Positions 612 to 30,462 of a DNA stretch of 64,000 bases are shown here, in pieces (within the stretch, counting starts at the first letter, position 1; every line of letters starts with the position of its first letter). Under the pieces are notes generated by a model. The model was given only the letters and a program-made list of their open reading frames with translations. It ran no database searches and was not told the DNA's origin. Both the position numbers and the translations under genes were made by a program. Source of the DNA: Phalacrocorax aristotelis (Eukaryota; Chordata; Aves; Suliformes; Phalacrocoracidae); contig NC_134279.1 in NCBI RefSeq assembly GCF_949628215.1, positions 58,697,766 to 58,761,765 of the forward strand. Direction: 5' to 3'.

Positions 612-836
612 CTATTTTATCTCATGTCTTACAAAATGGAGCAGCGTGTCCAACTGTACAGGACATACAAGGTCATGCACGACAGTGATATAAGTCATTG
701 CTGGATAACTTCTTGCCTTTTGCAAAATCTGTTCCAATGCAGATACTGGAGAGCAGCATACTACATCTAATCCCAATCTCCTGCACATTTTAATTGGTTC
801 AATGAAAAAATTAGCATTAATAAATTCTGGAGTCAT
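612..836 (-). other. Unassigned coding-like ORF, possible exon or pseudogene fragment
   Basis: A 74-codon minus-strand ORF starts with ATG directly after an in-frame TAA. Its composition looks like a folded alpha/beta domain (segments such as ALEQILQKARSYPAMTYITV) rather than random AT-rich translation. A donor-like GTAAGA follows the codons for LLHF near the end, so it could be part of an exon. I do not recognise it as FAM114A1. There is a faint resemblance in pattern to the anticodon-binding-like region of NCOA5, from memory only and not an identification. It may be a decayed retrocopy, an exon of an unknown gene, or chance. Confidence 0.2.
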
Positions 837-3800: not shown

Positions 3801-4014
3801 CGCCAGAACAATTGCTCGCTATATGTGTGCAGTTAGTTAAAGAGAGATAAGATACTAATTATATGGAAACTACCTTATTGTTAGAAACTAAAATCAGCTA
3901 TGCTAAACAAATTATAACGATGCAGTAAGAATGCTAATCAGTTTGGGATGTCTAAATCAGGGTTTGAAGGATAATGAAACTGAAATCCTTGGAACAACTA
4001 TTTCAGCTCAGTCT

Positions 4015-4233
4015 TAAAGAGAAAGGAATGTAAGGAAGACGTTTTTTACAGTAGGAATGATCATTCAGTGGAACAACCTCCCCAGGGACACGGTAGAGTC
4101 TCCATTACTGGAGGTTTCAAGATGCAACTGAATAAGGTGCTAGATAATCTCATACAGGCACCCTTTCCCACAAAAGCCTGGACTAGATGATCTTTCGAGG
4201 TCCCTTCCTACCTGGGCCTTTCCATGATACTAT
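4015..4233 (+). mobile_element. CR1 LINE 3' fragment
   Basis: The stretch has the typical order of an avian CR1 3' end: a tract around GGAACAACCTCCCCAGGGA, then a GGAGGTTTCAAGATGCAACT-type segment, then GACTAGATGATCTTT, GGTCCCTTCC and a degenerate end resembling the family's ATTCTATG-type tail (CCATGATACTAT). It is a 5'-truncated, noncoding copy of the kind that makes up most avian CR1 elements. It may extend left to about 3,960, where AAACTGAAAT and CTCAGTCTTAAAGAGAAA also look CR1-like. Divergence suggests an old insertion. It sits in presumed FAM114A1 intron sequence, in the opposite orientation to the gene. Confidence 0.8.
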
Positions 4234-7200: not shown

Positions 7201-7647
7201 GTGTGATAGCTTAACAGTTTTGCTGGGTGTCAGTGAAAGCTGGAATGACTTACAAGAAGTGAATTCATATTGTATAGATAGAAGTCATGGTGTATAAACC
7301 ACAAACACGCATGTCTATGAATCTGTGTTGGCATGCTTTGACTTCAAAAACCATAAACCTTTGGCTGTTAGTATTAGATGCTGTGTCCTTCCCGTGAAGA
7401 AGCCACAATGAGGTAACTCACTAACTTTACAAACAAGCCTAGTACCTTGTCCATAATCTCACACGAATAAATATTTATACGCTTTGACAGTTTAGCAAGG
7501 TCCTTCTTCCTATTAAAAAAAAAATCATGCTTGCCAAGCATAGCAGGATGAAACTGTCTATGAACCTTTGAAATACAACATTAATGCATCTAATGACACA
7601 TTAAAATTACGATTTATTTCCACGTACTTTACTGATTGAACACTTAC

Positions 7648-7735
7648 CGACTGTGGCGGAAGCTGATGACAGGAGAGACTTCCCCCAAGTACCCCAAGCT
7701 CCCCATCTACTTGCTTTAGATGAGGAGTCTGTGGC
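7648..7735 (-). CDS. FAM114A1: FAM114A1 coding exon 3 (second coding exon)
   Basis: This 88-base exon reads ATDSSSKASRWGAWGTWGKS and then [10 protein letters not shown]. It carries the tryptophan/glycine-rich block that is strongly conserved at this point in FAM114A1 (mammalian form [20 protein letters not shown]). It is bounded on the minus strand by an acceptor (TTCTTATAG before 7,735) and a strong donor (GTAAGTG from 7,647). It joins the preceding exon in phase 0 and ends after the first base of a glycine codon. The frame, splice sites and homology agree, so the call is firm although the exon is short. Confidence 0.9.
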
Positions 7736-9867: not shown

Positions 9868-10217
9868 TGGACTGCTTTGTTCATGCAGTGTTTCTTCGGA
9901 TTCAGGTTCCGCATCAAGGCTTACAGTTTCATTGCACTCAGTGGGCACGTCTTCAGTCACCTCTCCACTGGAAGTCAGACTTTCAATTACTTTTTCAGTC
10001 AAAGGGGTTTTGTTAATAAATATGTCTCCTTCCTGTCCATTACTGGCATTCTGAGTGGCCTGTCCATGTTCATCATGTGAAGACTCATGCAAGATCTCAG
10101 CTTCCACGAGGTGTGGTACTGACTCCTGAGGCAATACCTCATTGCTGGGAATTTCCATTACTTCAGGTTTTTCTTCAGATGGGATGCCATCATGTATGTC
10201 TTCAGACATTTTCAGTT
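9868..10217 (-). CDS. FAM114A1: FAM114A1 exon 2, with the start codon
   Basis: The ATG is at 10,209 on the minus strand. The exon encodes the first 114 residues, an acidic Glu/Ser-rich region beginning MSEDIHDGIPSEEKPEVMEI and including GEVTEDVPTECNETVSLDAE. This matches the N-terminus of FAM114A1 (NOXP20), for example the conserved block around [20 protein letters not shown] in mammals. The acceptor TTCTATATTCAG lies just before 10,217, leaving eight noncoding bases. The donor follows the codon for P114 (GTAAGTAA). The ORF continues into the intron to 9,733, but that extension is not homologous. FAM114A1 is a cytoplasmic or Golgi-associated protein of about 560 residues, linked to neuronal development and to Rab2 binding. 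Only its N-terminus is in this window. Confidence 0.9.
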
Positions 10218-12755
10218 CTGAATATAGAAAATAAATTAAGGCTTGTAGGTTCCATAAATATTTGAATTACTATAAAATAGGCAGAATTTACCATAAGTTA
10301 TTGCTGAAAAACAACACAGCCTTGATGTAAGGCATCCTGAAGCATGGAGCCCTGTGGCACATGCATCATGCCGGCATTGATATCACGATGATGCTGTGAA
10401 TACTCTATTCTCCTTGCAGGATATCACTCAAGTACAAAGAGCAGTGCTACTATTTTCCAAAATATGGTTTGGTGAGGGAGAAAGGGTGTTCATTTGTCTG
10501 GAGAAGTCAAATATAAGAACTTCCACATGGTTAATTCCTCTGTTCCCTATTAGATGTGTATGAGTGACCATTGGAGAACAGGATAATCTGAGCTGCAACG
10601 GCCAAGCAGCTCTTGCTCTCCTCATCATGTCCATGTACACAGATTCCTACAGCCTGCTCACTGATGGAGAGGAGGATGACAAACACAGTGTGACTAGAAC
10701 TGTGGTGATATTTATGTTTTGGAAAAGGAGCATAATTAGAGAACATAACAGAGCACGGTCCCTCCAGCCATTTCATAGAGAGGAAAGATTCACTGCTAAC
10801 GCCTTTTCTGCATCACTTGTCCCAGGGGCTTACTGTTGGGGAGTGCAACACTTCTCACCTGCTCCTAAAAGTCCAGACATCAGTTCTGGAATTAAGCTGT
10901 GTGATTAGATTTCAATTCTGGAGCCAAGATAATCTTGCATGAGGTACAGTTATTGATTTTTTTTTCCCTTTGGTAGGTTACGAATGCATTTTCTCCTATT
11001 TACTCCTTACCTTCCAATGCAACTTTCTTTTTCTAAGTATTTTCCACCACTGCACAGCCATCAGGCTGAGGATCCAGGAAGAGAAAGAATGGCCATTTTG
11101 TGAGCTCTGCAGCTGATTAAGGAGTGGCACTGGCAGAGTCCAAAAGGACTACTGTACAGTGATTGATACCATTTACTTGTTGGCAATAACAGTATGCCTG
11201 GCACTCTACTCAGAAGACAACCCTTGACAGAGAGTTGTAATTGCAAGTTCTTGACTATATACAGTTACACAGCATAAATTAAACTCACAGAACCCTCTCA
11301 GTAGATGCCATCTTTTCACTGACTCCCATATTGATTAAACATGGTTTGAAGCTTTGTACCTGTTAGGAAAGATCGAGGTTCTAAAAGAGACCAAACAATG
11401 GGGTGGGGGGGAAAAAGCAAAAAGCAATGTAACTGGGATTTAGAAGAAGTTTGCTTACAAAACATGTACTTAAATTATCATACTTTATTAAAGTCTATAG
11501 AATTGTGTATGTTTCTGGCTTTAACAGCCTGTTTATCTCACTTGAATACAGGTCAGCTGTTTGAACAGTCCAAAGAATAGCATTTGGGATCAGTGAACAA
11601 GAAACATAAATAAACAAATAAGCGCTTGGTACCACTTATATTACTTTACCTTACACTATAACTTAATTATCTTTAGAAAACATGCCTTTACCAGTCAGAA
11701 TCTTTACATCTGCCACAAGTGTTTGCAGTTTTCCATTACAAATATAGCAAATACTACAAAATGCTTCAGTGTAGGGAAATACTGCCATTGTTTTAACAGT
11801 ACTCGCTGTGTGATGGCCAACATCACCTGAAGAAAATTTTTGTATTTGTAAACCAAATTCCACCATCAGAGATGAGGATCCTCTATGAAAAACCTGTAAA
11901 ATCTGTATATGGGTGCATCATAATTTTGCATGGGGATTAGATCTGAGTAAGAAAATGCCCAACACCAATTTGTAAAGGGTCACATATAGACATGCACATG
12001 AATTTTTGCAGGACTGGGTCATCTTTGGGGCCACTTGGGCCAAGGTCCCTGCAGTTGTCTGCTAAACCTTCCTTACGAGAGCAAAGCACCTAACAGCAAA
12101 CTATCACAGATGTCAGAAACCCCGAGCTGCGCTTGACCCTGGAGTAAGGCGTCATTCATGCCGTCATCCGTGAGGCTATACTGATCTAAACCAACTCGGA
12201 CAACTCCGCCCAAAAGGAATTAAGGGAATGAACTGATAGTTCATGAAGGCGACGCCAGCGCCAGCTCGGGAACGGGGGCCGGGCAAGGCCCGCGCCCGCA
12301 GCACTCAGCCGCCCTGAGGCGGGCAGCGGACGGCGGGACCGGCCGCCCCTCAGGCGGCACCTGCCGGCCCGTCGCCTGAGGAGTTCAATCTCGCCTCGAC
12401 AGCACAGCACAGCCCAGCCCAGCCGCCGACAGGCGCCCTCCGAGGCGGATCAACGCCTCCGTGAGGGATAACTTTTTTGACCGGCGGCATCGCGCTCCCC
12501 TTTCGCTCAACGCCCGCTCTCGCTTCCCCCTCCGCGGGAGGCGGCGAGTACGACCAACTGAGGTGGCGCCTCCGCGGACGCCCCCCGCCCGAGACGCATC
12601 AGGACCAGGCGAAGCGCCGCTCCCTCAAACCCGCAGCAGCCACAGCTTCCCCTTTTTTTTTTTTATTTTCGAAATCCCCTCTGGGGCAAAGTTATTAGTG
12701 AGGAGCCCGCAATTTCAAACCCGTGAGAGAAAGAAGAAATCGCTGTGCTCCTTAC
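10218..12755 (-). other. FAM114A1: FAM114A1 intron 1
   Basis: This intron separates the probable 5' UTR exon in the CpG island from the ATG exon. Its right end is a donor of the form GCG|GTAAGG (minus strand, donor GT at 12,755-12,754) and its left end is the acceptor at 10,218. Beyond the CpG-rich edge above about 12,180 the sequence is ordinary and AT-rich. ORFs near 10,430-10,910 have no recognisable homology. The intron rests on the exon 1 assignment. Confidence 0.5.
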
Positions 12756-13265
12756 CGCTCAGCGGTCCCCTCGCCGGCGCGCCCCCTCCTCCGTCCCCTT
12801 CCCCGCCCCGCCACGTCGGCAGCCGCGGGGGGAGGAGGCAGAGCAGGCCGGGCGGCCGCGGGCCGGCCGGCCCGCGGGTTGGAGGGAGGGTTGCCTCTCC
12901 TTCCCCCGCTCTCCTTCCGTCTCTCCAGGAGGCCGCCTGTTGCGAAGGGACTGCTCCGCGCCGCCACCAAGCCGCCCCAGGGCTTCGTGCTTCGGGACGG
13001 GGCGGCGGCGGTGACCCACGGCGGAGAGCCGCCCCGGCCGCCATGAGCGCCCCTCACCGCTGCCCCCGCAGCCATGAGCTCCCCTCACGGCCCCCCGCTT
13101 CCTGCGGCCCCGCTCGGCGGCGGGGTGCCTGCGGGACACGGCGCGCTCTCCCGGCGGGGGAGGCGGGCCCCCGCCGGGGAACCCGCCGGCCAGGGCCGAG
13201 GGTGGAGCAGGGCCTCCCTCAGGGGCGGGCGCCCGCGCCCTCCTTGAGCGGGCGAAGGGGGTGAA
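12180..13265. promoter_or_regulatory. FAM114A1: CpG island, FAM114A1 promoter region
   Basis: There is an abrupt rise in G+C and CpG density between AT-rich flanks, with GC-box clusters such as CCCCGCCCCGCC at 12,801-12,812. Its position immediately upstream of FAM114A1, on the opposite side from TLR1LB, fits a housekeeping-type promoter that initiates at several sites. It could also fire to the right, towards the TLR genes, but I see no plus-strand gene that clearly starts here. The many long overlapping ORFs in both strands (Arg/Pro/Gly-rich) result from high G+C and are not genes. Confidence 0.75.
12756..13000 (-). other. FAM114A1: Probable FAM114A1 exon 1 (5' UTR; 5' end uncertain)
   Basis: In the CpG island the minus strand carries a good donor (GCTGAGCG|GTAAGGAG) with the last exon base at 12,756. 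Splicing to the acceptor at 10,217 would put a noncoding leader in front of the ATG, as in mammalian FAM114A1. The transcription start cannot be read from sequence, and 13,000 is a placeholder within the island. Other donor-like sites at about 13,049 and 13,083 (GTGAGG on the minus strand) are alternatives. Confidence 0.4.
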
Positions 13266-16150
13266 TTTGCAAGGCTAATGTTACAACGTCCATACTGAGG
13301 CATTGTAAGTGTAAATGAGTCTAGTCACCCAGCTGGCGTCAATTTTTTTTTTTTTTTTTTTTAATTTTTTTTTTGTGGTAGAAAGTTTACTCCTCAAAGC
13401 GAGCTGCTGCTAACCACCTACTGAAGCGTGGAGCTGCGGAATTAAGTGTCTGAGAGTTCGCTTTTCAGATGTCAATTTGCACCTTCATTATAAACGAAAC
13501 TGAGAGGTGCAGGCACACGTTTCCAGTAAGTTAGTGTTAGCACTGGGTGCCCGCAGCCACCTGAGAAATACTTGGTTGAACAAGGTTCTTGCCCAAGAAC
13601 CTCTGGTTCTTGTCTCTAATTCCTCATCCTCTTTCCTCTTTTTGCCACTTCATTTTAAGGCGAAGTGTGCCCTTTTGCAGTGACAAAAGGCAGTTCTGCG
13701 ATTCATTGTAGCACCCTTTCTATCATTAGTCTTACTCCGCCAAAGAAAGAAAACTTACTGTTGTCACAGGAAGCAAAAGAATACATGTGAATCACTGAGG
13801 AGAGCTGCTATAGGAGGTCACAAAATAAAGCCCCAGTTCTCAGAAGTGTGCTTCACAAATATGGATCACACTACGTGACTTGTACGCTTATCAGGCAAAA
13901 ATCTCTGAGGTTTCCCATTAAGGTAAGTGCTAGAAGAACAAATAATTGTGTCACTACATAATAGGTTTATTCTGAAGGTGTTTCAATGAGAATTTAAGTA
14001 TTGGGGCATGCTGGCAGTTCTAGCATCTTTTAGGTTAATTTGTTAACATTTAGATGTATTTATTGAAAACTAAATCTAGAGTGGCCCTAAGACCAGAGGT
14101 CCCTCTGCTTTTCAGTGGAGATTGTGGAAGAGTCAGGGCAGTGTCTTAGGAGGAGTCACGATAGATGAAGCTCAATAGCTGGAAATTGTTTTTCCTATGA
14201 TGGATGGTAATTTTGACTGTAAAGTGGATCTTATGCTGCCAGTTTTGCAGATTCTGTACAAGGCCATGCATGTTTTAGAGCTGCAGGACAGTATTAATCA
14301 CTATTGTAATATAAAGTTATTAATTCAGAATGAAATTAACATTATAAGTGCGTAAACGTGTATGCCTGCCTATTGGAACAGAAGAATGTATTAGATTCCT
14401 GAGTTCTGAGATCACTTTCCTAAATATAGGACCTGCATTTTCTAATTTTCTTTCTCTCTCACTTTTTCACTTGTATTTTCTTACTATGGTAATATTGCAA
14501 ATGGTTTTGGAAAAAAATGAGCAATAGAGATTGAACACCTCACCTCAGATTTCGCTGAAGTTTGTTGTTACTGTAAGTTGAGTGTCATCATCTTCCTAGC
14601 GGGTTTCAAAAAAGATACTTCCCTTTTAATAAATAGATAAAGAAAAGATGGAAGGAAACATCTACATTTGACTGCTTTTAACAACACACAGAAGTATGGA
14701 TAACATTTGAGGAATATAATAATCTTCTTCCAGTGACTGCACGGGTAAATCTGAGTTGTAAATATGAGGGCTAATGGCATGCAATTAATGGTAATATGTT
14801 TATTTTGCTGTTTAATGTATGCTTTATCTGCCTTTATAGTGCATAGACAGAACTGGAGAACTCAAACTATTCCAGTGGCCAGCTCATACTGTTGCTTAAT
14901 TGAAGAAATACTCTCAAATAAGAGTCTCTAATTTGAAGCAGTTATTACATGCTAACCAAATGTATGTCTGGTGCTGTTTTCATTAGACTAATAGGTAGGT
15001 TATGGTCAAGCAATTAAAATGTTACATTCCAAAACAGGAATGAATGTTTGGTCATCCTAAGGTCTTGCCTTAGGATTTTATCTAATCCTAAGGATGGATA
15101 GCAAAATCTTTCCAGCTCTAAGGGCAGACAATGGTGAGATTTGTATGTAACAGCAATTATGATGTGTCATGTGGAAGCCAGATGTGAATACTCTTGTCTG
15201 TATTGACAGAAATGAAGAAATAGTCATAGAGTACTACCATAAAGCTCATCGGCATAACAGCTGAGAATATGAAGTGTCCATATTCTGTCGCTTACTACTT
15301 GTCCTGCCTTTTCCTTCCTTTTTTTGAATGACCTCTTTTCACTTGAGGCTGAGAAATGAAATACAGTGTGCAGAATAAGCGTTAAAGTGAAAAAGTAATT
15401 CTTAAGATAATTTCCTCTGCCTCCTGAATCTCTGAAATGTTAAATCTTGAATGCGTTATGGTATGCTAACCCAGAAAGGTAGGTTGTAGTGTGGCAGTTC
15501 TGTATTTAGATCTCAGCTAAGATGGGATATCTGACCAACATTATACAGAAATAAAGAGACTATTTTATGTCTTTGCTAGGACAACAAGTCAAGTGTTTGG
15601 ACATTCAGTACCGAAGTTGAGTTGCTGCTCTCTTTTAATTAAAAAAAAAAGAAAAAAAAGCGCCCACCCACTGTTTCCATGTCCACTATTTAACCCAGTC
15701 ACAACTCTGTTGGAGCAGGAGAGAGAGATTATTTTTCCATTCCCATTATGGAAATTAAAATAAGACAAACAGGACTTTTATTTACCAGCCTTGATAAGAA
15801 CTTGACAACTGAATTGGTATAGCTAAATGAAAAAAATCAGAATAATGCATATAAACTTAGATCATTATTATTGCTCAGAAAAAGTACTTATTTTTGCATT
15901 CATTTGTATTAATTTGATGAAGACAGAGAGTGGGTTAAAAGATAATTTTTTTCCCCTGCTTAATCTCTTGCAAAGCATGAAAACACGTAGTTCAATTATA
16001 TTTAAATAATGGGGAAATTACAGTACTGTTGTACGTGGAAAATACATCTGGAGGAAAGCAAATGCCATTTCATAAGGTGTCAGTAGGTGGCGCAAACATT
16101 TACATAAAAGGTTTGGGCGTTCCTAAATGTTATTACACAGTAGGATAGAG
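13266..16150. other. Intergenic region between FAM114A1 and TLR1LB
   Basis: G+C falls sharply after the island. A poly-T block (20 T, AA, 10 T) occupies 13,343-13,374. I see no gene, RNA gene or recognisable mobile element in the rest. All ORFs are short and without homology. Confidence 0.6.
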
Positions 16151-18138: not shown

Positions 18139-20064
18139 ATGAGATCTCTCAGAAACTTTTTTCTTTACAAGTGTCTGTTTGCATTAACTTTTTGGAACCA
18201 TATCAGCCTGTCTGTGGAAAATGAACTCTTTACATCTATTTCTAATGGTTTTCCAGAAGATGGTTCTGACAAAAAAATCAAGACCCTGCCACTCCTGTAT
18301 ACAAATAGTCATCAGTCCAAAGCTAATTTTGACTGGGTTGTGATACAAAATACTACAGAAAGCCTGTCACTGTCAGAAATCACAAATGGCAATCTAAAAA
18401 AATTAGTAGCTTTATTATCTAATTTCAGACAAGGCTCCAGGCTACAAACTCTGACACTGACAAATGTGTCAGCGGACTGGAATGCTATTATGGACATTTT
18501 TCAAACTGTATGGCACTCATCCATCGAATACTTCAATATTATCAGTGTAACACAATTGTCGGACATCACAGCCTATAACTTTAACTATTCAGGTACCTCT
18601 ATGAAAGCACTGACAATGAAGAAAGTTAAAATTGAAGATCTGTACTTCATACAGGATGACCTATACAGAATATTTGCAGACATGAACATTGCAGCCTTGA
18701 CAATAGCTGAATCAAAGATAATACATATGGTGTGTCCTTCGTCTGACAGTCCCTTTAGTTACTTAAATTTTTCAAAGAATGATTTAACAGATCTTCTTTT
18801 TCAAAAATGTGACAAATTAATTAATCTGGAGACATTAATCTTGAAGAAGAATAAATTTGTGAGCCTTTCCAAGGTAAGCTTCATGACCAGCCATATGAAA
18901 TTGCTGAAATATTTGGACATGAGCAACAACTTGCTGAGTCACGCTGCAGCTGATGTGCAATGCCAGTGGGCTGAGTCTCTGACAGAGTTGGACCTGTCCT
19001 CAAATCAGTTGACGGATTCCGTGTTTGAGTGCTTGCCTGTCAACATCAAAAAGCTTGACCTACAAAACAATCAGATCACCAGTGTGGCCAAGGGGATGGC
19101 TGAGCTGAAATCCTTGAAAGAGCTGAACCTGGCATCAAACAGGCTGGCTGACCTGCCAGGGTGCAGTGGCTTTACATCCCTGGAGTTCCTGAATATAGAG
19201 ATGAATTCGATCCTCACCCCATCTGCCGACTTCTTCCAGAGCTGCCCACGGGTCAAGGAGCTACAAGCTGGGCACAACCCGTTCAAGTGTTCTTGTGAAC
19301 TGCAAGACTTTATCCGTCTGGAGAGGCAGTCTGGATGGAAGCTGTTTGGCTGGCCGGCGGCATACACGTGCGAGTACCCGGAAGACTTGCGAGGAACGCA
19401 GCTGAAGGACTTCCACCTGACTGAACTGGCTTGCAACACGATGCTCTTGCTTGTGACAGCTCTGCTGCTGACGCTGGTGCTGGTGGGTGTTGTGGCCTTT
19501 CTGTGCATCTACCTGGATGTGCTGTGGTACGTGCAGATGACGTGGCAGTGGACGCAGACAAAGCGGAGAGCTTGGCACAACCACCCCGAAGAGCAGGAGA
19601 GAGTTCTGCAGTTCCACGCGTTCATTTCCTACAGCGAGCGTGATTCGTTGTGGGTGAAGAACGAGCTGATCCCAAACCTGGAGAAGGGGGAGGGCGGTGT
19701 CCAACTGTGCCAGCACGAGAGAAACTTCATCCCTGGCAAGAGCATTGTGGAGAACATCATTAACTGCATTGAGAAGAGCTACAAGTCGATCTTTGTGTTG
19801 TCTCCTAACTTTGTGCAGAGTGAGTGGTGTCACTATGAGCTGTACTTTGCCCATCACAAATTATTCAGTGAGAATTCCAACAGCTTAATCCTCATTTTAC
19901 TGGCGCCCATCTCTCCGTGTATTATCCCTGCGAGGTATCACAAGCTGAAGGCTCTCATGGCAAAGCGGACGTACCTGGAGTGGCCGAAGGAGAGGAGCAA
20001 GCATGCCCTTTTCTGGGCTAACCTGAGGGCAGCTATTAGCATTAACCTGCCAATGGCTGATTGA
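18139..20064 (+). CDS. TLR1B: TLR1LB, Toll-like receptor 1 family member B (short ectodomain)
   Basis: This is a 641-residue type I receptor in a single coding exon. It is expected to pair with TLR2-type receptors at the membrane to sense lipopeptides and signal through MyD88. It has a signal peptide (about 1-25, hydrophobic core FFLYKCLFALTFW), a short leucine-rich ectodomain, an LRR C-terminal cap (380-432, NPFKCSC...), a transmembrane segment (about 434-457) and a TIR domain with FISYS (495-499), BB-loop RNFIPGKS (P532) and FWANL (625-629). The start at 18,139 aligns residue for residue with the TLR1LA start up to VENE. The frame stays open upstream to a TTG at 18,097, but there is no earlier ATG. 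Compared with TLR1LA it lacks about 156 residues, roughly the first five or six repeats. From codon 241 on it is nearly identical to TLR1LA through gene conversion. It ends INLPMAD. Confidence 0.95.
   Translation: MRSLRNFFLYKCLFALTFWNHISLSVENELFTSISNGFPEDGSDKKIKTLPLLYTNSHQSKANFDWVVIQNTTESLSLSEITNGNLKKLVALLSNFRQGSRLQTLTLTNVSADWNAIMDIFQTVWHSSIEYFNIISVTQLSDITAYNFNYSGTSMKALTMKKVKIEDLYFIQDDLYRIFADMNIAALTIAESKIIHMVCPSSDSPFSYLNFSKNDLTDLLFQKCDKLINLETLILKKNKFVSLSKVSFMTSHMKLLKYLDMSNNLLSHAAADVQCQWAESLTELDLSSNQLTDSVFECLPVNIKKLDLQNNQITSVAKGMAELKSLKELNLASNRLADLPGCSGFTSLEFLNIEMNSILTPSADFFQSCPRVKELQAGHNPFKCSCELQDFIRLERQSGWKLFGWPAAYTCEYPEDLRGTQLKDFHLTELACNTMLLLVTALLLTLVLVGVVAFLCIYLDVLWYVQMTWQWTQTKRRAWHNHPEEQERVLQFHAFISYSERDSLWVKNELIPNLEKGEGGVQLCQHERNFIPGKSIVENIINCIEKSYKSIFVLSPNFVQSEWCHYELYFAHHKLFSENSNSLILILLAPISPCIIPARYHKLKALMAKRTYLEWPKERSKHALFWANLRAAISINLPMAD
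18861..20054 (+). repeat. Gene-conversion tract, TLR1LB copy
   Basis: This is a 1,194-base direct repeat of 29,196-30,389 at a constant offset of 10,335 bases. I find two single mismatches (19,491 T versus C, 19,788 G versus A, both silent) and one patch of six mismatches in 19,905-19,921. Mismatches become frequent at once outside the tract (18,845, 18,848, 18,860 on the left; from 20,055 on the right). It covers the last repeats, the LRR C-terminal cap, the membrane segment and the TIR domain. Confidence 0.95.
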
Positions 20065-20131
20065 AAGAGGTGTGGGGAAACAGATTAAGAATCTTTCTAA
20101 TGGTATTTCTTCTGTTTTTTCTTGGTGAAGC

Positions 20132-20137
20132 AATAAA
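20132..20137 (+). terminator. TLR1LB polyadenylation signal
   Basis: A canonical AATAAA lies 68 bases after the stop codon. Cleavage would be expected around 20,150-20,160, giving a very short 3' UTR. Confidence 0.6.
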
Positions 20138-20159
20138 TACTTTATGAATTCCATTGCTT

Positions 20160-23100
20160 GTCTATGTATTTAACTTTCTGTTACAGAACCTTGTTTCTAT
20201 GTAGCTGTCTATGCTGCCTCCGAACTGTAGGCAAAATTCAACTACCTTAGTGGAAATGTCTTGAGGTTGATACAGAGATAACAAATCATAAATGAATTTC
20301 ACTGTGGATTTTGAAATACAGCTTGAAATACTGTAGTGATTTTTTTTTCAGCAGAATAAAATCTGGGGAAGTTGCTATAGTAATGTGGAAGAGTGCTTGA
20401 GTTTCTGGAGAGTTTGCAGAGCTGCATTAATCACAAGGCTTAGGCAGCTTGGTCACAGGACCTCTTTGTGAGAAAGAACATTACGCATCCTGAGATGATG
20501 TCTAAAAGTCTAGAGCTTGAGGTGATTCCTGGGTAGTGTTTTCCCAGATTCAGTGAAGCTTAAAAGGATAAGATCCAGGTACAGGGCTCTGTGACCGTTC
20601 AGCACAGGTGGACAAAAATGGCCATGCCACAAAAGAGGACTGAGTGAGGAAGAAAGGTTTTGGGGTTTTTTCCTTAAAAAGAAAAAAAGGAAGGATAAGC
20701 TACTTCACTCTTTGTGGTTCAGAGTTTGGCACTGCTGTGAGGGAGAAGCACTGAATTGACAATCAGAGCTCTAATTCCCATCCTCTGATAGAGTCCTGGT
20801 ACCGTTTCGATCCTGAGAGATACCCTGACCAAAGGGACTGAGAGGATATCCGCAGTAATATGACTGCCTTCATCATCGTTGGCTATATGTTGAGAAACTT
20901 TTGACTTCTCTATATCCTGCTTAGTTTATGCTTATTATTAAACGAATCTGTGCTTTTCAGCCAAAACAGTATCTTTTGCAGCACAGCTATGGGTTCTGAT
21001 CAGAAAGGCAATAACCAGTCAGAGGCTGAAAAAATTTGCCCGGTCTTGGACAGCAGGTAACACCCTCTATTCATGGAGTCAGAAAGACAAGCTACATTTA
21101 CAGTATTTGCTGTCCTTTATAGAAATACAGCAGGCCCTGTTATCTGCACTTGTGCTGTTTTGCCTTCAAGAAAAGGGGCTGGGCTCCAACAAACATTCAC
21201 AACTGCTGAAGATGATCACAGCGAACTTCCTCTTTGCCCCCAGAAGGGTGGGTGTTTGCCATCCGGAACACCAGACTTAAATGACCAGCAAGCAGGAAGT
21301 TTTCCTTTCAAAACTGCATTTCAACATGAAGACGAGAGAAGAACGAATGTTAAAATGAAATCCTCATTTAATATAGAATGTTCACATTTTATCTCATTCT
21401 TGTCTTCCATTATTATTAACAAAAGATATTAATTTTGTGTGGGGTTTTTTGTTTTTGTTTTTTTTTTTCCTGATGTCTAAGCAGGCCGAGGTCTCTTGAC
21501 CTGAAGTTGTGAAATGTAAGTAACTGTTTCATGATTTGTAGGGGAAAGATCAAATTTAACACCTTGAGCTCTCTCATCCCACTTAGCCTCAAAATTAATA
21601 TAACATACCTATTACCAAATTGCAGGCATTTCATTCAGGACTGTGGAAAGAATGGTTTTCTGTACTTCCTCCTTCCCCTCTAACTAATGCTTCAGTGTAT
21701 GTCTCATTTAACCCTTAGAAAACTGAAGATGAACAGACAACTTGGTTTGCCTGTCCCTTTCACATAGCCAGGGACAGCTGGGTTGTTACACAGTGTCTTG
21801 CTTGGAAATTTTCTTTGAAAGCCTCAGAGTTTTAGGTCAGCAGCCCTTGAAACTTCTGCAATACAGTTAACATCTCATGTTGCATGTGAAGCTTTAAGAA
21901 CTCGTATGGCTTCTTTTGTTGGCTGGAGGACAGAGAAACCCTCTGAAACTCAGAGAGTGCACTAGAAATCCTTCCTGTTACTCAGGTGGGAGAACACAGC
22001 TGTTGCCAGAAATTAATTATTCCTTTCAGGAGTGAAAGGTTTTAGCAGGGGGTTGCTTGCCACTTTGGAAAGAACTTGGGAACTACATGACCTCTGGCAA
22101 TGTAGCTGATGCAATCATAAGCAGAAATATGTAATTACAGGTTTCTGGTATATATCCAAAATCCTTTTGTGAATAATGTTTGAAAGGGAGGCTTGTAATG
22201 AGCATGGGAAGTAATTGAAACTTGTATTTTGTAACCAGAAGCCCACATACTATTAGATTTTTGTCCATGCTATGTGCCAGATAATTGCCAAAACAGGTAC
22301 ACGTACAGTGAATTACTGCATCTAGTTGCTCTGATTCCACAAGAGAGAATGAGTTTCTCAAGCAGAACATATCAGAATATTTGAAACAACTATTTTGGCC
22401 TCCACCATAGTCTGAGCACTTTCTTTAAAAGCAGTTTTAGTCCAAGAAGAAATTTTTCACATAGGTGGGCCCTTGTGTTAGTCTCACAGCCCGTGGCAGC
22501 CACTTATCTGCACCTTGTTGATGTGAGTCTGCAGCTGGTCCTGCACTGAAAGCTGCAACTGCTAATGCACTCCAGGGATCAGGAAAATGGAGTATGTAAA
22601 TATATTCTGATGTCAGATACTGTATCAGAGCAGATTCTTGGCACTTGACTAGTCATCTTGGTGACTAGCACGAATGCTATTTTTACATGCATAATAATAT
22701 CAGCATACAAAACCGATAACATGGGTGTTAAACACCCTCTAAAACCTAGAAAATATGCAGAATGAAGTGAAAGTGTAAATGTGTTTATATATATTTAAGT
22801 AGTGTGTAGTATAAAGGAAACCGAACAGCGACCAACTGGCTGTTCTGACGCAATGTGGGTTGCCCTGCTGAGAACTCAGCTCTTTTTTAGCTTCGGAAAT
22901 ATTACGAAGCATCATCACTGAAGCTCAGCTACAGATAGTCAGAGCAGGGAACAGCACTTTAGGGAAGAATGGGACTTGGTGGGAGATGAGGCATTCTGCT
23001 GAGATGAAGGTTCAAAACCTCTGTGAAACCCTTGTTTTACTCAGGGCTTCAACCTGGCTGGTTTTTCTTTCAGAAACATTTACTGAGATTGACTATAATG

Positions 23101-26100
23101 TTCTTTTGTAGTCACTGTTCAGTCAAGAGGAAGCAATGTTGATAAACCAATAAATGAGAAAGTTCTGTATTCTGCAAGGTGGCTCTGGGTTACCAGTTTG
23201 ATTTCCACAGCTTTGATCCTTGTGTCTGTCTATGCCCAAGCAAAATAGGCTTGGGCATAAACGCAATACAATCTCTGCTCATTTTGACTTGTCATAGCAT
23301 TTAGCCCATTTCACCTACTTGACACACAGGGTTAAGTTGTGACAATGAGAATGGCAGTTGAAGATAACGTCCTTGATATGACCAAACACTGGCTTTGCAA
23401 CCTTTAATAATTGTATTAACATTTCATGAGTGCTTGGATGAGTCCAACTGCTCTGGCTATGTTTTAACTCGGTGTTTTGCACGTGTAAGTTCCCTTCTGC
23501 AGTTCCAGCGGAGAGATTCTTCACGTGTTTGGGCATAGTTCTGGTCCTGAGTAGCTTTGGTACCCAGCCAAGTACAGCTGCGGTTCATCTCTGGGTAAGT
23601 AATCACAATATACAGGCAGAAGTGTAAAATGTACGTTGAGGAAAGGCTGCTTGTGAAGCTAGGTGCTTATCAGCTACAAAAGCACCCAGCAATATAAACT
23701 TCAGAAATGGAACAAGGTATCTGCATGAGTGTACACACATGCTGACTGTGGAAAGCATGGTATTTAGCTGGTACATTTCAGGATGCATGGATGGAAATAC
23801 ACTGCTTTTTAGTTTTTGTGTATCATGCAAAACGACTTAAGCATTAAACTGAAACCAGCCCCAAACACAGCTTTGCTGAATTGGTTAGTAAAAATAACGT
23901 TATGCAATGTTCCTAATGATTTAACAGAGGTATTCAGGAGTATCGGTTTTATTTTAACTAGTTTCAAATTTTTCTTTATGGCAAACTGTTTATTTGGATG
24001 TATTTTAAAGTCTCAGAAATAAGGGTGGTAAGGAAATTAAATGTACTACAACTAAATGTGTAGATACTTTTGCTTTTTACAGCTCTGTGTGCACTGGAGT
24101 CAGTTCTGATGAAAGCTGATGGTGTATTTGATTTTGTCCATGCACCAAAGCTTATTCATGGATCACATTGGAAGTAAAACTGCCACTGATTTGCATAATT
24201 TAGTTCTCAATCTGATTATGATATTAATGTTCTGTCAACAAGTGCCTTAGTCTATTCATTTGCATGGATTAATGCCCAGCAACGGGAACTTGTCCTTTAA
24301 CTGGAAGACAAGACAGTATCAGTTGACAAGAAACTCTTGCTGCTTATTGAGAAATGTTCATAATCCCTGGTCTTGTCTTAGGTCACAGACATCTCAGAGT
24401 TTTCTGTAATGTATTGCTCAGGTTTGCTGCACTGAGGAAAGCAGAATGGTTTCAGTTCAGGCTATCTTACTCATCAATCTCAAAATGAAGAACAGACATT
24501 TTCTTTCAGCAAAGCAAAGGGTTACATTCTTTACAAAATTGAAAAGGTAATTGCAAAAGAAAAGTTTAAAATGGAATTTAATGCAAGCTTGAAATATAGC
24601 TGGCACTGCTATCTGGAATAAATTTTCATACTTTTCAGCTTTCTTTTGCTGAATCCTTTCTTGCCTACAGCTCTCCTCCAAGACGCTGTTATATGGGGCG
24701 GACTAAGCTCTAGACTGAGTCCAGAATAAGCCCCCTCCCTGCTAGTTTGTTCATACCTGAAGAATTCATTACATACTTCACGAATTTAATTTTAAACTTC
24801 ATTAAGATTAAATAAAGCTTCACTCATTTATTCATCTCTGCTTCTTTCTCCCTTGCTAATTAATCTTACTGAAGCATGTCATATTATTTCAGAGGCTTAC
24901 GGGAGCAAGGTGTGGGTTTTGGTTATTGTCATCTGCCTTTGCAATGCCCTCACTCTCTGCTCTGCTGATTTGCTCCCTAGGCTCATGTCCCTATTCAACA
25001 CATTAACTGAATGGCTGCTTTACTGGGTTCCTCCATCCCCAGATTGCTCTATATTGCTGTGTTCTTCATGGCTTCTTTACAACTTTCGCATCGCAGCAAA
25101 TATTCTATATAGTTCATTTTTTATAATTTTTTGAAGAAAGCTAAAACGTGGGCATCCCTGATAACCATCCGAGGCACCTCTAGTGTAAAGATGACTGACC
25201 TGTAAAGGTTTTGAACTGTGCCAGTTTGCCCCTGTTACTAGCTTTTGAGATCTAAGCTTTGCCATCTGTCAATGTGCTACATTAATTAGTCTGCTTGCTG
25301 AGGAGAATAACTCAGCAGGGTAGAGCTCTGCAAGAGATTTTGATAGGAAGAGACGTTGGTGGTGAGGGTTCTGCTTCCTCTTTTCTGTGTGTGCAAAAGA
25401 GGAGATGCAGTCAGCGAATTTCTAGAACATCTGTGTAACCATCAGAAGCAGATTTGAAATTAGAAATGCAGAATTATTTAAACAATCTTGCCTTGGTGAA
25501 TATTCTGTACCGCAGATAGGTTTATTTCCTTCTAAACTGTACAGTTATGTAGATATTACAGAAGTAAATGTATTTTGAGTCCGGACTGTTAGAAGTTTAC
25601 TTTCATTGTGCTCTTAATACCTGTACTGTAGGGAAATTCGATTAATTCTTAGAATTATATAGCCTATATAAGAAAACCCTGTTCTTTCTACTTCCTGAGG
25701 TAGTAATTATTAAGGAATTAGCATCTCATGTGAGATTCCCCAGCCTGAAGATTACATATGCTTGAAATTCTCTTCTGAGGATGTTAACCGAGTATGCAGA
25801 GGTCTTTTGCTGGTTCTTCGATTGGAGATGAATTCCACACACAAATGGTGGGTTATATTTGCTCCATTATCTATATTTTTTTTCTTTTTGCTGTATGTGT
25901 TTTGGACTCCATCAAATCTCAGGTGCTGGTCTTTCTTCACTGTTGGAAGATATTCTTGCATTTTGAAATTTCAGAGAAAATTCTCATCTATATGTTGAAT
26001 TTCAACAAAGAAGAAAGGAAAAAAATGCTTGGTATGGCATTTTTCATTCTCAGCCATCTTTAATACTATCATAAAAGTGTTGGAGGGGTAACCGTTGATC

Positions 26101-27915
26101 CTTAATATCGCTTTGCTACACGTATCTGCTTTATTCTTTGACTGTGGCACTCTTCAGTGCTATATGGTGTGCATCATCCCTTCTTGCAGTGTATAGCATA
26201 ACATGAACAGTAAACTAAAATTCATCTGGCAATGAAGCATGGACCATTGTTTTATTTCTCTCTTCAGAACATTTCTTGCTTTGTCCCTGATGTCTCTTTT
26301 GCCCAGTGGAAAATTCCTCCAGATACTTCTAGATAAAAGTTTATTTGATTCAAGAGGTTCTTTACCAGCCTGGACTCTGAAGCACAGGGTCAGCTGCTCT
26401 TTGAAAGAAGCTGGGTCAGATTTCCTTGTCTTGGTTCTGTATTTTGACCAACCATCCCAGCTCCATTTCTATTCTGTACTCAGATACCCCAGCACAACTT
26501 CCTGAAGACAGAAATTGACCTCTCAATTGTATTTTACTGAGGTAAAATTTACACTTTACTGATTATTCTTTTATTGCTTTTGGTGATGTTAATTACGTGT
26601 ATTTTTGCTTTACATATTTGAAAGAAAACTTGATTAAGCTTGGTAGGAGACTTGGAGGGGAAAGGATGAGTTTTTATATCAGTCAATCAAATTATTGGGA
26701 CTAACACATGTAGAAATCTAGAACTGAAATAGGCTTTTGGGTTTTATTTAACAAAAGATTACACAGGGCCAGAATTTTAAAACTTTTTTTTCCCCCAAAC
26801 AAAATCAGCACAGGAGAAAAAAAATGGGGCTGTTTGTCTCCTGAAACAGTTTATGAGTTCCTTATACTTCAGGTTGTCTGTGTGTTGTGCTAAATGCTTG
26901 ATGACAAGAGAGTATTGCCCAGGTCATGCTTTTTCATTATAGGACTGATGCCTCTCCAAATCTGTGTAGGCTATTGATAGACATGACCATATATTAATTC
27001 TATTAGACCATTTTCCATATCTACAAAACATTTCCCTCCCTGGGCTTTTTGATCCTTGGAACTAGACTCGTTGTCCCTCATGGTTTCTGGAGAGGTTCTT
27101 TGTCAAGTTGCAGCTGTGGGGTAATTTGGAAAATGTGGAGAATTTCCTAGGACACCTAGGAAATCCTGGAGTCTTTGGAAGTGTCAGGTGTTTTCTTTCA
27201 GATTTTGGGTACCACTGTTTCATATGTGGTGTCCAGTTATGCTGTGGTTTTTCTGTTAGTATGCTTTTGGACAGACCAGCATTACAATATTCATGAGACA
27301 TTGTAATTCCTCCTCCGGCTCTTGGCTTACTGGAAAAATGGACCCCTATGCCTTTGTGCTATAGCAAAGACAAAGTTGGTCAGCTTCTCTGATCGGCTGA
27401 CCCTGAGGGGGTGCATGACTGTGTTCTGGGTCTTTGGGGTGTGAAGAGGAATATCCTTTGGCTTTTTTGACTGAAGAGGTTGCTTTTGCTCTGGTTCCTG
27501 TGAGGGTGCATGGGGCTTTTGGAGTTCTGTCCCCAAATGTATCTGGACATGGGGCGTAGTGAAAGAGCAGATAGGAGGCTTCTTGTGTTCTTCTTTACTC
27601 CTAAATGCATTGATGACTGTTTGAGTTTTTGAAGATTGTTGAGAAATTTGCATTTCTTAACATCTTTGTGGTTTTTTTTAACTCACCACTGATTGTATTC
27701 CTCCCATTGTAAAGGAATTAGTTTCTACTTAACTGAGAAAATCAATAACTGGAATTAAAGAATGGGAGTGAGGAGGATTGATAAGAACTTAGAACAAGGG
27801 TATGTAAAAAAAATTTTTTATGATATAAATTTTGTATTGAATTTTATTTTAGCAGTAAAAAGCAAATTCAACAGTTCAACAATTTCAGCAAATTCCATGT
27901 GTTTTCTTTTCATAG
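20160..27915. other. Region between TLR1LB and TLR1LA coding exons
   Basis: This holds the 3' flank of TLR1LB and, at its right end, the presumed intron or upstream region of TLR1LA. It ends in the acceptor TTTTCTTTTCATAG (AG at 27,914-27,915). It is AT-rich. A perfect 11-base inverted repeat (TATGCCCAAGC / GCTTGGGCATA, 23,231-23,259, 7-base loop) is the only clear structure. An ETS-like CAGGAAGTTTTCC lies near 21,296 and could belong to a TLR1LA promoter, but I see no convincing first exon. Minus-strand ORFs at 27,062-27,301 and 27,327-27,653 are unrecognised. Confidence 0.5.
23231..23259. repeat. Perfect 11-base inverted repeat
   Basis: The left arm is TATGCCCAAGC (23,231-23,241), the loop is AAAATAG and the right arm is GCTTGGGCATA (23,249-23,259). 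It can form a hairpin. There is no sign of a microRNA-length stem or of a transcript. Confidence 0.6.
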
Positions 27916-28005
27916 GGCTGGACTCATCACTGAGACATGTTGAACAGCAAACAAAGATATGCTTCTATATTTCTGTAAGGAACCAAGATAAACCTGGAAG
28001 GCATA

Positions 28006-30462
28006 ATGGGACCCCGTACAAATGTCTATGTCTTTGCTTGTGTCTCTACATTCATGCTATGGAATAGTATCCAGGCAACTGTGGAAAATGAATTTATTGC
28101 AAATTACTCAAGCAGTTTGCTAACTAACATTCCAAACAACATTCCAGTCCATACTCGTGTATTAGATTTATCACATAATAGGATCTCTGGACTCAGTATC
28201 TCAGAGTTTATTTCTCTTTCTGACCTTCAAGTATTAAATCTTTCTCATAACCTAATTACAGAGCTTGACTTCAGTGCCTTCATTTTTAATGAACATTTAG
28301 AATACTTAGATTTATCTCATAATAGCATTTTGAAAGTTTACTGTCAAACTCTTCCATATCTTAGACATTTAGATCTTTCTTTCAATAAGTTTACTGTCCT
28401 GCCCATCTGTCAGGAATTTGGGAACATGTTTCGTTTGGAATATCTAGGATTAAGTGCCACAATGATGCGAAGGTCAGACTTCAGGTATATTATACCTTTG
28501 CAGCTTCACACAGTCTTCCTAACCTTAGAAGACTTTTCTCTGTATGAGCCTCAGAGTCTGACAACCTTGAATACAAGGAGCCTCTATATTGTATTTGCAG
28601 CAAACCAAAACTTCAGTTTTTACCTCCTGTATGATGGAATGAGCACTTCAGAAACTGTAAAAATAGTTAACTTAAGATATAGCTTGAGCTACAAGGATTT
28701 CCCCTCTCCTACTTTAACGCTTCTGAAGAAAATCAAGACAACAGCTCTAATGCTTGACACTGTGGATTTACAATGGCCTATAATTTTGCAAATTTTCCTG
28801 TTTATTTGGTATTCACCTGTGGAGCATTTGACTGTGAGACATTTGACTTTTCGGGGTCCACTGCAGGAGCTGAATGAGTATGAATTTCTACTATTATTAA
28901 GCTCTCTGGAACAATTAATGTCTGTGGGTGGCCAAATGAAAGCGCTAACTTTGGAGCATGTTCGTAACAAAGTCTATTATTTCAACCAGGAGATTCTATA
29001 CAGACATTTTTCAGAGATGAATATTGCCAGTTTGACAATATATGATGCATATATGCCACACATGCTTTGCCCCAATAGGACAAGCTCATTTCAGTATTTA
29101 AATTTTTCTCACAATGCCCTGACAGATGAATTGTTCCAGAATTGTGGCACTCTGACAGATCTGAAATTACTTGTTTTGAGGAGGAATAAATTTGAGAGCC
29201 TTTCCAAGGTAAGCTTCATGACCAGCCATATGAAATTGCTGAAATATTTGGACATGAGCAACAACTTGCTGAGTCACGCTGCAGCTGATGTGCAATGCCA
29301 GTGGGCTGAGTCTCTGACAGAGTTGGACCTGTCCTCAAATCAGTTGACGGATTCCGTGTTTGAGTGCTTGCCTGTCAACATCAAAAAGCTTGACCTACAA
29401 AACAATCAGATCACCAGTGTGGCCAAGGGGATGGCTGAGCTGAAATCCTTGAAAGAGCTGAACCTGGCATCAAACAGGCTGGCTGACCTGCCAGGGTGCA
29501 GTGGCTTTACATCCCTGGAGTTCCTGAATATAGAGATGAATTCGATCCTCACCCCATCTGCCGACTTCTTCCAGAGCTGCCCACGGGTCAAGGAGCTACA
29601 AGCTGGGCACAACCCGTTCAAGTGTTCTTGTGAACTGCAAGACTTTATCCGTCTGGAGAGGCAGTCTGGATGGAAGCTGTTTGGCTGGCCGGCGGCATAC
29701 ACGTGCGAGTACCCGGAAGACTTGCGAGGAACGCAGCTGAAGGACTTCCACCTGACTGAACTGGCTTGCAACACGATGCTCTTGCTTGTGACAGCTCTGC
29801 TGCTGACGCTGGTGCTGGTGGGTGTCGTGGCCTTTCTGTGCATCTACCTGGATGTGCTGTGGTACGTGCAGATGACGTGGCAGTGGACGCAGACAAAGCG
29901 GAGAGCTTGGCACAACCACCCCGAAGAGCAGGAGAGAGTTCTGCAGTTCCACGCGTTCATTTCCTACAGCGAGCGTGATTCGTTGTGGGTGAAGAACGAG
30001 CTGATCCCAAACCTGGAGAAGGGGGAGGGCGGTGTCCAACTGTGCCAGCACGAGAGAAACTTCATCCCTGGCAAGAGCATTGTGGAGAACATCATTAACT
30101 GCATTGAGAAGAGCTACAAGTCAATCTTTGTGTTGTCTCCTAACTTTGTGCAGAGTGAGTGGTGTCACTATGAGCTGTACTTTGCCCATCACAAATTATT
30201 CAGTGAGAATTCCAACAGCTTAATCCTCATTTTACTGGCACCGATCCCTTCGTATGTTATCCCTGCGAGGTATCACAAGCTGAAGGCTCTCATGGCAAAG
30301 CGGACGTACCTGGAGTGGCCGAAGGAGAGGAGCAAGCATGCCCTTTTCTGGGCTAACCTGAGGGCAGCTATTAGCATTAACCTGCCAATATCCTTTGAAG
30401 CAAATGAGGAGCAGAGTCATATTACTTCTACTGGTAGTGTAAGTCAGTATGTGAATAACTGA
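28006..30462 (+). CDS. TLR1A: TLR1LA, Toll-like receptor 1 family member A (full length)
   Basis: This is an 818-residue type I receptor in one coding exon, the avian gene also called TLR16. It is expected to pair with TLR2 proteins on the cell surface, bind bacterial lipopeptides and signal through MyD88. It has a signal peptide (about 1-25) and leucine-rich repeats beginning VLDLSHNRI (52-60), VLNLSHNLI (76-84), YLDLSHNSI (100-108) and HLDLSFNKF (121-129). A divergent central part (about 150-360) follows, as is typical of TLR1/2/6/10, then further repeats from YLNFSHNAL (364) on. It continues with an LRR C-terminal cap (536-588), a transmembrane segment (about 590-613) and a TIR domain with FISYS (651-655), BB-loop RNFIPGKS (P688) and FWANL (781-785). 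It ends with a 24-residue tail after INLP that TLR1LB lacks. The ATG is 91 bases after a strong splice acceptor (exon from 27,916). Confidence 0.97.
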   Translation: MGPRTNVYVFACVSTFMLWNSIQATVENEFIANYSSSLLTNIPNNIPVHTRVLDLSHNRISGLSISEFISLSDLQVLNLSHNLITELDFSAFIFNEHLEYLDLSHNSILKVYCQTLPYLRHLDLSFNKFTVLPICQEFGNMFRLEYLGLSATMMRRSDFRYIIPLQLHTVFLTLEDFSLYEPQSLTTLNTRSLYIVFAANQNFSFYLLYDGMSTSETVKIVNLRYSLSYKDFPSPTLTLLKKIKTTALMLDTVDLQWPIILQIFLFIWYSPVEHLTVRHLTFRGPLQELNEYEFLLLLSSLEQLMSVGGQMKALTLEHVRNKVYYFNQEILYRHFSEMNIASLTIYDAYMPHMLCPNRTSSFQYLNFSHNALTDELFQNCGTLTDLKLLVLRRNKFESLSKVSFMTSHMKLLKYLDMSNNLLSHAAADVQCQWAESLTELDLSSNQLTDSVFECLPVNIKKLDLQNNQITSVAKGMAELKSLKELNLASNRLADLPGCSGFTSLEFLNIEMNSILTPSADFFQSCPRVKELQAGHNPFKCSCELQDFIRLERQSGWKLFGWPAAYTCEYPEDLRGTQLKDFHLTELACNTMLLLVTALLLTLVLVGVVAFLCIYLDVLWYVQMTWQWTQTKRRAWHNHPEEQERVLQFHAFISYSERDSLWVKNELIPNLEKGEGGVQLCQHERNFIPGKSIVENIINCIEKSYKSIFVLSPNFVQSEWCHYELYFAHHKLFSENSNSLILILLAPIPSYVIPARYHKLKALMAKRTYLEWPKERSKHALFWANLRAAISINLPISFEANEEQSHITSTGSVSQYVNN
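29196..30389 (+). repeat. Gene-conversion tract, TLR1LA copy
   Basis: This is the partner of 18,861-20,054, in direct orientation. The patch at 30,240-30,256 reads IPSYV where TLR1LB reads ISPCI. The TLR1LA version is closer to the human TLR1 form (PIPQYSIP), so TLR1LA more likely keeps the older state there. Confidence 0.95.

What the first reader, a model, noticed from the sequence alone, without database searches (positions are those of the whole stretch)
18861..30389. Sharp gene-conversion tract makes TLR1LA and TLR1LB share one signalling half
Over 1,194 bases the two receptors differ at 8 positions (2 silent singles and 6 in one patch), while the coding sequence just upstream of 18,861 is strongly diverged and the 3' tails after 20,054/30,389 are unrelated. 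An ordinary recent duplication would not leave such sharp edges inside an exon. The homogenised part covers the last repeats, the cap, the membrane segment and the TIR domain. The ligand-facing part stays different. Gene conversion between avian TLR1 paralogues is known in general; the exact borders and near-zero divergence here are read directly from this sequence.
Basis: partly seen in the sequence, partly recalled or inferred. Interest (0 to 1): 0.75.

Follow-up and report, generated by a model that had tools for sequence, protein, structure and literature searches.

The report
Gene conversion between bird TLR1 paralogues
In this bird two neighbouring immune-sensor genes keep different sensing halves but share one almost identical signalling half, because DNA has been copied between them; this is known in other birds, and base composition here suggests the copying has used the same edge for a very long time.

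Summary
Upstream coding sequence is about 60% alike and the 3' flanks match at chance. [quoted passage not shown]

Added here: (1) third-codon GC jumps from 0.37 to 0.70 in both genes; the 95% intervals of the change-points (18,814-18,895; 29,122-29,245) include the identity edge, which suggests long-term GC-biased conversion with a fixed 5' edge. (2) The same model predicts high-low-high GC3 in the TLR2 pair of the same genome; seen (0.66/0.33/0.76). Six single-copy TLR loci show no step of this size, but TLR15 and TLR7 show weaker significant ones. (3) The TLR2 pair is now homogenised across its ligand-binding centre as well (1 difference in 2,313 bp). (4) The patch leaves TLR1B with a different TIR DD loop. 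No second species was available, so trees and direction were not tested, and assembly error was not checked with reads.

The parts
18139..20064 (+). TLR1B coding sequence, 641 aa from the first ATG (open frame from 18,097)
   Evidence: LRR, TIR; TIR nearest TLR1 chains; order beside a FAM114-type exon
28006..30462 (+). TLR1A coding sequence, 818 aa / 2,457 bp, the length given for chicken TLR1A
   Evidence: chicken length in PMC2275738
18861..20054 (+). converted tract, TLR1B copy: end of LRR13, LRR14-19, cap, membrane segment, TIR
29196..30389 (+). converted tract, TLR1A copy
18841..18860 (+). shoulder of the 5' edge in TLR1B: 3 differences in 20 bp (Lys/Arg, Lys/Arg, Val/Glu against 29,176-29,195)
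18814..18895 (+). 95% interval of the GC3 change-point in TLR1B (best 18,838)
   Evidence: 0 of 1000 shuffles reach the LRT
29122..29245 (+). 95% interval of the GC3 change-point in TLR1A (best 29,194)
   Evidence: 0 of 1000 shuffles reach the LRT
19905..19921 (+). island of 6 differences in TLR1B; TIR DD loop reads APISPCIIP
30240..30256 (+). same island in TLR1A; DD loop reads APIPSYVIP, nearer to the human TLR1/6/10 chains
30390..30459 (+). TLR1A C-terminal tail outside the tract, GC3 7 of 23
   Evidence: Fisher p 2.6e-4 against the tract
7634..7708 (-). FAM114-family (DUF719) exon that fixes the gene order (context)
   Evidence: 21.0 bits, E 4e-4, just under Pfam's cut-off of 22.4; coordinates computed from the frame

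Best explanation
TLR1B and TLR1A are an old tandem pair whose 3' halves are repeatedly copied from one to the other by ectopic gene conversion; the last event or events were recent. The 5' edge in LRR13 stays put because homology ends there: upstream the genes are about 60% alike, so heteroduplex cannot extend, and downstream homology ends at the stop codon. Each round leaves the block homologous and primes the next. Repair of the heteroduplex favours G and C, so over a long time third positions of the block became GC-rich while the sensing half did not. The outcome is two receptors with different lipopeptide-sensing halves and one shared membrane and TIR output. Shown: tract, edges, GC3 steps, the TLR2 parallel. 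Inferred: recurrence, GC bias of repair, the homology-limited edge, the functional benefit.
For: Tract and edges; 389 of 393 conserved residues in the tract use the same codon against 56 of 97 in the aligned N-terminal part. GC3 0.365/0.375 upstream and 0.705/0.703 in the tract; change-points coincide with the identity edge, LRT 72.6 and 78.2 against shuffle maxima of 19.8 and 22.7; odds ratios 4.6 and 4.3 after stratifying by codon box; CpG observed/expected 0.19-0.20 against 0.47; GC3 falls to 7 of 23 in the TLR1A tail. The GC-rich block starts inside the LRR array, not at a domain border (0.67 LRR/cap, 0.79 membrane, 0.70 TIR). Prediction met in the TLR2 pair of the same genome: GC3 0.66/0.33/0.76 (L005) and 0.66/0.33/0.75 (L006), LRT 116 and 111. 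Four of six single-copy TLR loci stay within 95% of shuffles. The same tract was reported in four birds (PMC3125219).
Against: Single-copy TLR15 (0.44 to 0.62, LRT 22.2) and TLR7 (0.43 to 0.55, LRT 14.1, equal to the largest of 500 shuffles) also show a C-terminal GC3 rise, so part of the step may be general. With fourfold sites only, the best change-points lie 118-133 bp downstream of the edge, with wide intervals that include it. The second GC3 edge of TLR2 (nt 1413-1527 in L005) lies at least 122 nt beyond Huang's 1291, and the first (564-714) only just reaches 713. GC as high as the tract's is not unique in the window: 4.5% of other 1,194-bp windows reach 0.517. No orthologue was available, so AT-to-GC excess was not shown directly. 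The quail genome paper reports gene-wise clades of TLR1A and TLR1B (PMC7017630, passage; region of the genes used not stated there).
Confidence: 0.72

Rival explanations
1. One recent conversion only; the GC3 step has another cause, such as codon choice or a general GC rise in C-terminal halves of TLR genes.
For: TLR15 and TLR7, single-copy, show a weaker C-terminal rise.
Against: The step is about twice as large in TLR1 and sits at the identity edge inside the LRR array; the TLR2 pair has a high N-terminal block that none of the six single-copy loci shows as a step; published tracts differ in divergence between species (1 to 38 differences).
Confidence: 0.17
2. The DD-loop island is kept different by selection because TLR1A and TLR1B pair differently with TLR2 TIRs or adaptors, so conversions covering it are removed.
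For: Six differences in 17 bp, four changing residues, in a loop that contributes to TIR dimers of chicken TLR15 (PMC10161769, passages); TLR1A keeps a human-like loop and TLR1B does not.
Against: Island dN 0.33 and dS 0.46 over 7 codons show no excess of amino-acid change. An unconverted relic or one clustered mutation event explains it as simply. This is an add-on to, not an alternative for, conversion.
Confidence: 0.3
3. Assembly or polishing error made the two 3' halves alike.
For: Penguin short-read assemblies had trouble with these regions (PMC8788240, passages). Reads were not available here.
Against: Eight differences remain, six of them clustered; the flanks are unique; the same tract was cloned or sequenced in other birds.
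Confidence: 0.04
4. Recent whole-gene duplication, or convergence by selection on the TIR.
For: Near identity of the 3' halves.
Against: Diverged 5' halves and unrelated flanks exclude a recent whole-gene duplication; identical codons at 389 of 393 conserved residues exclude convergence.
Confidence: 0.01

Closest known systems
Avian TLR1A/TLR1B gene conversion (Huang et al. 2011, PMC3125219)
   Same: Same pair, same one-sided C-terminal tract (alignment 1178-2374 chicken, 1178-2387 turkey, 1191-2397 duck, 1187-2466 zebra finch; here 1191-2384 in TLR1A coordinates)
   Different: Another species; 8 differences against 16, 26, 38 and 1 (counted over slightly different stretches). GC3 and the DD-loop island are not mentioned in the parts I saw ('GC content', 'GC3' and 'biased' have 0 occurrences in its main text)
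Mammalian TLR1/TLR6 gene conversion (Kruithof et al. 2007, PMC2077338)
   Same: C-terminal tract with fixed edges, from an LRR through the membrane segment into the TIR, in nine mammals
   Different: Starts at LRR16, ends within the TIR in most species; a later duplicate pair; authors had no clear explanation for the fixed edges (passages)
GC-rich concerted blocks in mammalian gene pairs (Carson and Scherer-type study, PMC2720389; author names recalled)
   Same: GC3 higher in the concerted than in the divergent part of the same gene; biased conversion named as cause
   Different: DDX19A/B, TUBG1/2 and BMP8A/B (not significant for the last); TLR1/6 only named as a known pair in the passages seen

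Membership tests
Avian TLR1A/TLR1B gene conversion | Paralogues nearly identical from about LRR14 to the TIR, diverged before it | tested here: met
   border in LRR13 by repeat count
Avian TLR1A/TLR1B gene conversion | Tandem pair beside FAM114A1, TLR1B first | tested here: met
   (weak Pfam match, two of three minus frames of 1-14,998 scanned) with the order in PMC5767321; KLF3 not sought
Avian TLR1A/TLR1B gene conversion | Identical codons for conserved residues in the tract but not upstream | tested here: met
   389 of 393 against 56 of 97
Avian TLR1A/TLR1B gene conversion | In the tract, paralogues of one species group together against orthologues | not testable with these tools
   no other bird sequence in reach; viral and prokaryote collections gave no relative
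GC-biased recurrent conversion | GC3 raised in the converted part and not in the rest of the gene | tested here: met
   TLR2 pair
GC-biased recurrent conversion | No comparable step in unconverted relatives | tested here: inconclusive
   four of six single-copy loci flat; TLR15 and TLR7 show weaker significant rises
GC-biased recurrent conversion | AT-to-GC excess among polarised substitutions | not testable with these tools
   needs outgroup species

The most novel reading that the evidence does not exclude
GC3 along TLR1 and TLR2 genes is a readable archive of past conversion, separate from present identity. In TLR1 the old and the present 5' edge coincide, because homology lies on one side only and the sensing half cannot be overwritten. 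In TLR2 the diverged ligand-binding centre lies between two homologous blocks and can be bridged by gap repair; in this bird it has been overwritten (1 difference in 2,313 bp) while GC3 still shows the old unconverted centre. Whether a paralogue pair can keep two sensing halves would then depend on how its homology blocks are arranged, and the DD-loop island would be a second, selected exception.
Probability: 0.4. Interest if true: 0.6.

Novelty: new member of a known kind. Interest (0 to 1): 0.42.

Why it matters
Kruithof et al. had no clear explanation for why TLR1/6 conversion edges stay in one place. A GC3 step at the identity edge is single-genome evidence that the edge is old and stable, and it gives a cheap test in any bird or mammal genome. 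The practical warning also stands: short reads cannot be assigned to TLR1A or TLR1B, or here to the two TLR2 genes, within these tracts.

Tried and rejected
Convergence: rejected by codon identity. Recent whole-gene duplication: rejected by diverged 5' halves and flanks. A template for the island elsewhere in the window: the two 25-mers match only their own site and the paralogue within 6 mismatches; the 17-mer has no other site within 4 mismatches. Relatives in viral and prokaryote contigs: 10 and 11 pattern stretches, none a relative by tblastn. Rfam: no match in the window at gathering scores. A remnant of the missing TLR1B N-terminal repeats upstream: tblastn found only the known coding part and a weak match to the first 47 residues, also inside the gene. 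The N-terminal alignment is gappy (13 blocks over the whole alignment), so its dS of 1.85 is only indicative. Dating gives about 2 My (0.24-7.1) from 2 silent changes, but the rate of 2e-9 is an assumption from recall. No structure was predicted; the border was placed by alignment to PDB chain 2z7x_B (index 361) and by counting repeats back from LRR19. The human numbering (about 385) rests on recall.

Identity as chicken was considered and set aside: TLR1B-TLR1A start distance 9,867 bp (10,472 in chicken; the TLR1B start codons may differ by some 30 bp); TLR1 and TLR2 23.0 Mb apart on C4 against about 50 Mb on chicken chromosome 4 (table in PMC2275738); 8 differences against 16. TLR1A codon 126 is TTC (Phe), one of the two chicken alleles.

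Papers. PMC3125219: outline, sections 17 and 24 (part 1 of 2) and passages. PMC2077338: passages and section 10. Passages only: PMC2720389, PMC8788240, PMC4737395, PMC5767321, PMC10161769, PMC2275738, PMC7017630, PMC2935454. PMC4737395 found no conversion in ectodomain fragments of pipit TLRs. One paper was not held. That the GC3 step, the island and the full TLR2 homogenisation are not in print rests only on searches in an open-licence library, whose listings I saw but whose papers I mostly did not open; supplements were not seen.

Corrected on recheck: ten, not eight, of the 22 TIR loci were analysed; L006 encodes 783 aa (my note says 782).

Full report
What is there. Two Toll-like receptor coding sequences lie on the + strand, 18,139-20,064 (641 aa) and 28,006-30,462 (818 aa). 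Both carry LRR and TIR domains; the 818-aa protein matches TLR1 and TLR6 chains best in the PDB and both TIRs match TLR1, then TLR6 and TLR10. A DUF719 exon (PF05334) on the minus strand at 7,634-7,708 (21.0 bits, just under the cut-off; that this is the FAM114 domain is recalled) and the chicken order FAM114A1-TLR1B-TLR1A-KLF3 (PMC5767321) make the first gene TLR1B and the second TLR1A. TLR1A has the chicken length of 818 aa; TLR1B is short at its N-terminus, as in chicken (PMC2275738).

Check of the observation. The edge has a 20-bp shoulder with three amino-acid changes. Upstream ungapped identity is 27-34 of 50 for 250 bp; downstream it is at chance. In the tract 389 of 393 conserved residues use the same codon; in the aligned N-terminal part 56 of 97 do. 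The own-genome search gives these two copies and two 125-bp matches at 77% in the TLR2 pair (counts there are lower bounds).

What is known. Huang et al. 2011 (PMC3125219, Table 1) report tracts between TLR1A and TLR1B at alignment positions 1178-2374 in chicken (16 differences), 1178-2387 in turkey (26), 1191-2397 in duck (38) and 1187-2466 in zebra finch (1); paralogues group by species in the tract and by gene outside it, and the tract is described as LRR14 to TIR. Here it is 1191-2384 in TLR1A coordinates. Temperley et al. had called the 3' sequences of the chicken genes almost identical. So this is a further species of a known case. Kruithof et al. found such tracts in nine mammals and had no clear explanation for the fixed edges.

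New evidence on history. GC3 is 0.365 (TLR1B) and 0.375 (TLR1A) upstream and 0.705 and 0.703 in the tract. A one-step model puts the change at 18,838 (95% 18,814-18,895) and 29,194 (29,122-29,245), LRT 72.6 and 78.2 against maxima of 19.8 and 22.7 in 1000 shuffles each. The two genes share the tract side, so they are independent only on the upstream side. Stratified by codon box the odds ratios are 4.6 and 4.3. With fourfold sites only the step remains (0 of 1000 each), but the best positions move 118-133 bp downstream with wide intervals that include the edge. In TLR1A the 23 codons after the tract fall to 0.30. The GC-rich block is thus bounded by the identity edges and spans LRRs, membrane segment and TIR alike. 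Such a level needs many substitutions, so I infer a long series of conversions with GC-biased repair and a stable edge; the latest is recent (dS 0.0079 outside the island).

Test in a second pair. Huang's TLR2A/2B tracts (63-713 and 1291-2375 in chicken, with an unconverted centre) predict high-low-high GC3. The TLR2 pair of the own genome (L005, L006; one search names L005) gives 0.66/0.33/0.76 and 0.66/0.33/0.75, LRT 116 and 111 (only 10 shuffles of the two-step model were run for each, maxima 25.1 and 18.7). CpG observed/expected follows (0.41/0.24/0.51). The first edge (nt 564-714 in L005) just reaches Huang's 713; the second (1413-1527) lies at least 122 nt beyond 1291. Six single-copy loci, one-step model, 500 shuffles each: TLR5 0.37 to 0.45 (LRT 6.0), TLR4 0.50 to 0.60 (7.7), a GC-rich LRR-TIR gene that I take to be TLR21 from recall, 0.91 to 0.80 (6.8), and a TLR3 exon (3.5) stay within 95% of shuffles; TLR15 (0.44 to 0.62, 22.2) and TLR7 (0.43 to 0.55, 14.1) do not. 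So a mild C-terminal rise exists in some unconverted TLRs, but none has a step of the size of TLR1 or the N-terminal high block of TLR2.

A surprise in TLR2. Here the two TLR2 genes differ at 1 of 2,313 positions (L005 1219-3531; Arg/Gln at codon 383), then at 12 of the last 27; 300-bp flanks match at 0.23 and 0.27. In the four published birds the pair differs at 275-296 sites. The ligand-binding centre has been homogenised while its GC3 stays low, so identity and GC3 record different time scales. A plausible reason why this can happen in TLR2 and not in TLR1 is that the TLR2 centre has homology on both sides. Assembly error is not excluded.

The island. The six clustered differences (19,905-19,921) change four residues after strand D of the TIR, which I place in the DD loop from the definition in PMC10161769 and the alignment (inference). 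TLR1A reads PIPSYVIP, close to PIPQYSIP (TLR1), PIPQNSIP (TLR6) and PIPFYCIP (TLR10); TLR1B reads PISPCIIP. dN 0.33 and dS 0.46 over 7 codons mark it as older than the homogenisation around it. An unconverted relic is the simplest reading; selection is possible.

Function. The border lies at residue 397 of TLR1A, in the repeat starting at 386, LRR13 by counting back from 19. The lipopeptide pocket (LRR9-12, cited in PMC3125219) lies upstream; the TLR2 interface (LRR11-14) straddles it. Both TIRs are nearer to TLR1 (260 and 268 bits) than to TLR10 (231 and 239). If TLR1A is the TLR10 orthologue, as Huang argues with modest bootstrap support, the donor was mostly TLR1B; this is weak. Shared output with separate input is the published proposal and was not tested here.

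Noticed in passing
L005 1183-3558 and L006 941-3289 (own genome C4, about 35.68 Mb): The TLR2 pair is almost identical over nearly the whole coding sequence (1 difference in 2,313 bp), including the centre that differs strongly in four published birds, while GC3 keeps a high-low-high pattern.
   Followed up: partly
19905-19921 and 30240-30256: Six differences in 17 bp leave TLR1B with a TIR DD loop unlike that of TLR1A and the human TLR1/6/10 chains.
   Followed up: partly
12001-14000: CpG-island-like stretch (GC 0.65 and 0.52, CpG observed/expected 0.93 and 0.75 per kb) between the FAM114-type exon and TLR1B; perhaps the FAM114A1 promoter.
   Followed up: no
55288-56319: Purine-rich tandem array of about 24-bp units (43.7 copies) that creates long spurious open frames on both strands.
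   Followed up: no
own genome C1 71.04-71.18 Mb (L013, L017, L019-L021): Five TIR exons on the minus strand within 140 kb, probably the IL-1 receptor cluster (recalled); another place to look for conversion.
   Followed up: no
L030 (TLR15) and L033 (TLR7): Single-copy TLR genes with a modest but significant GC3 rise toward the C-terminus, cause unknown.
   Followed up: no
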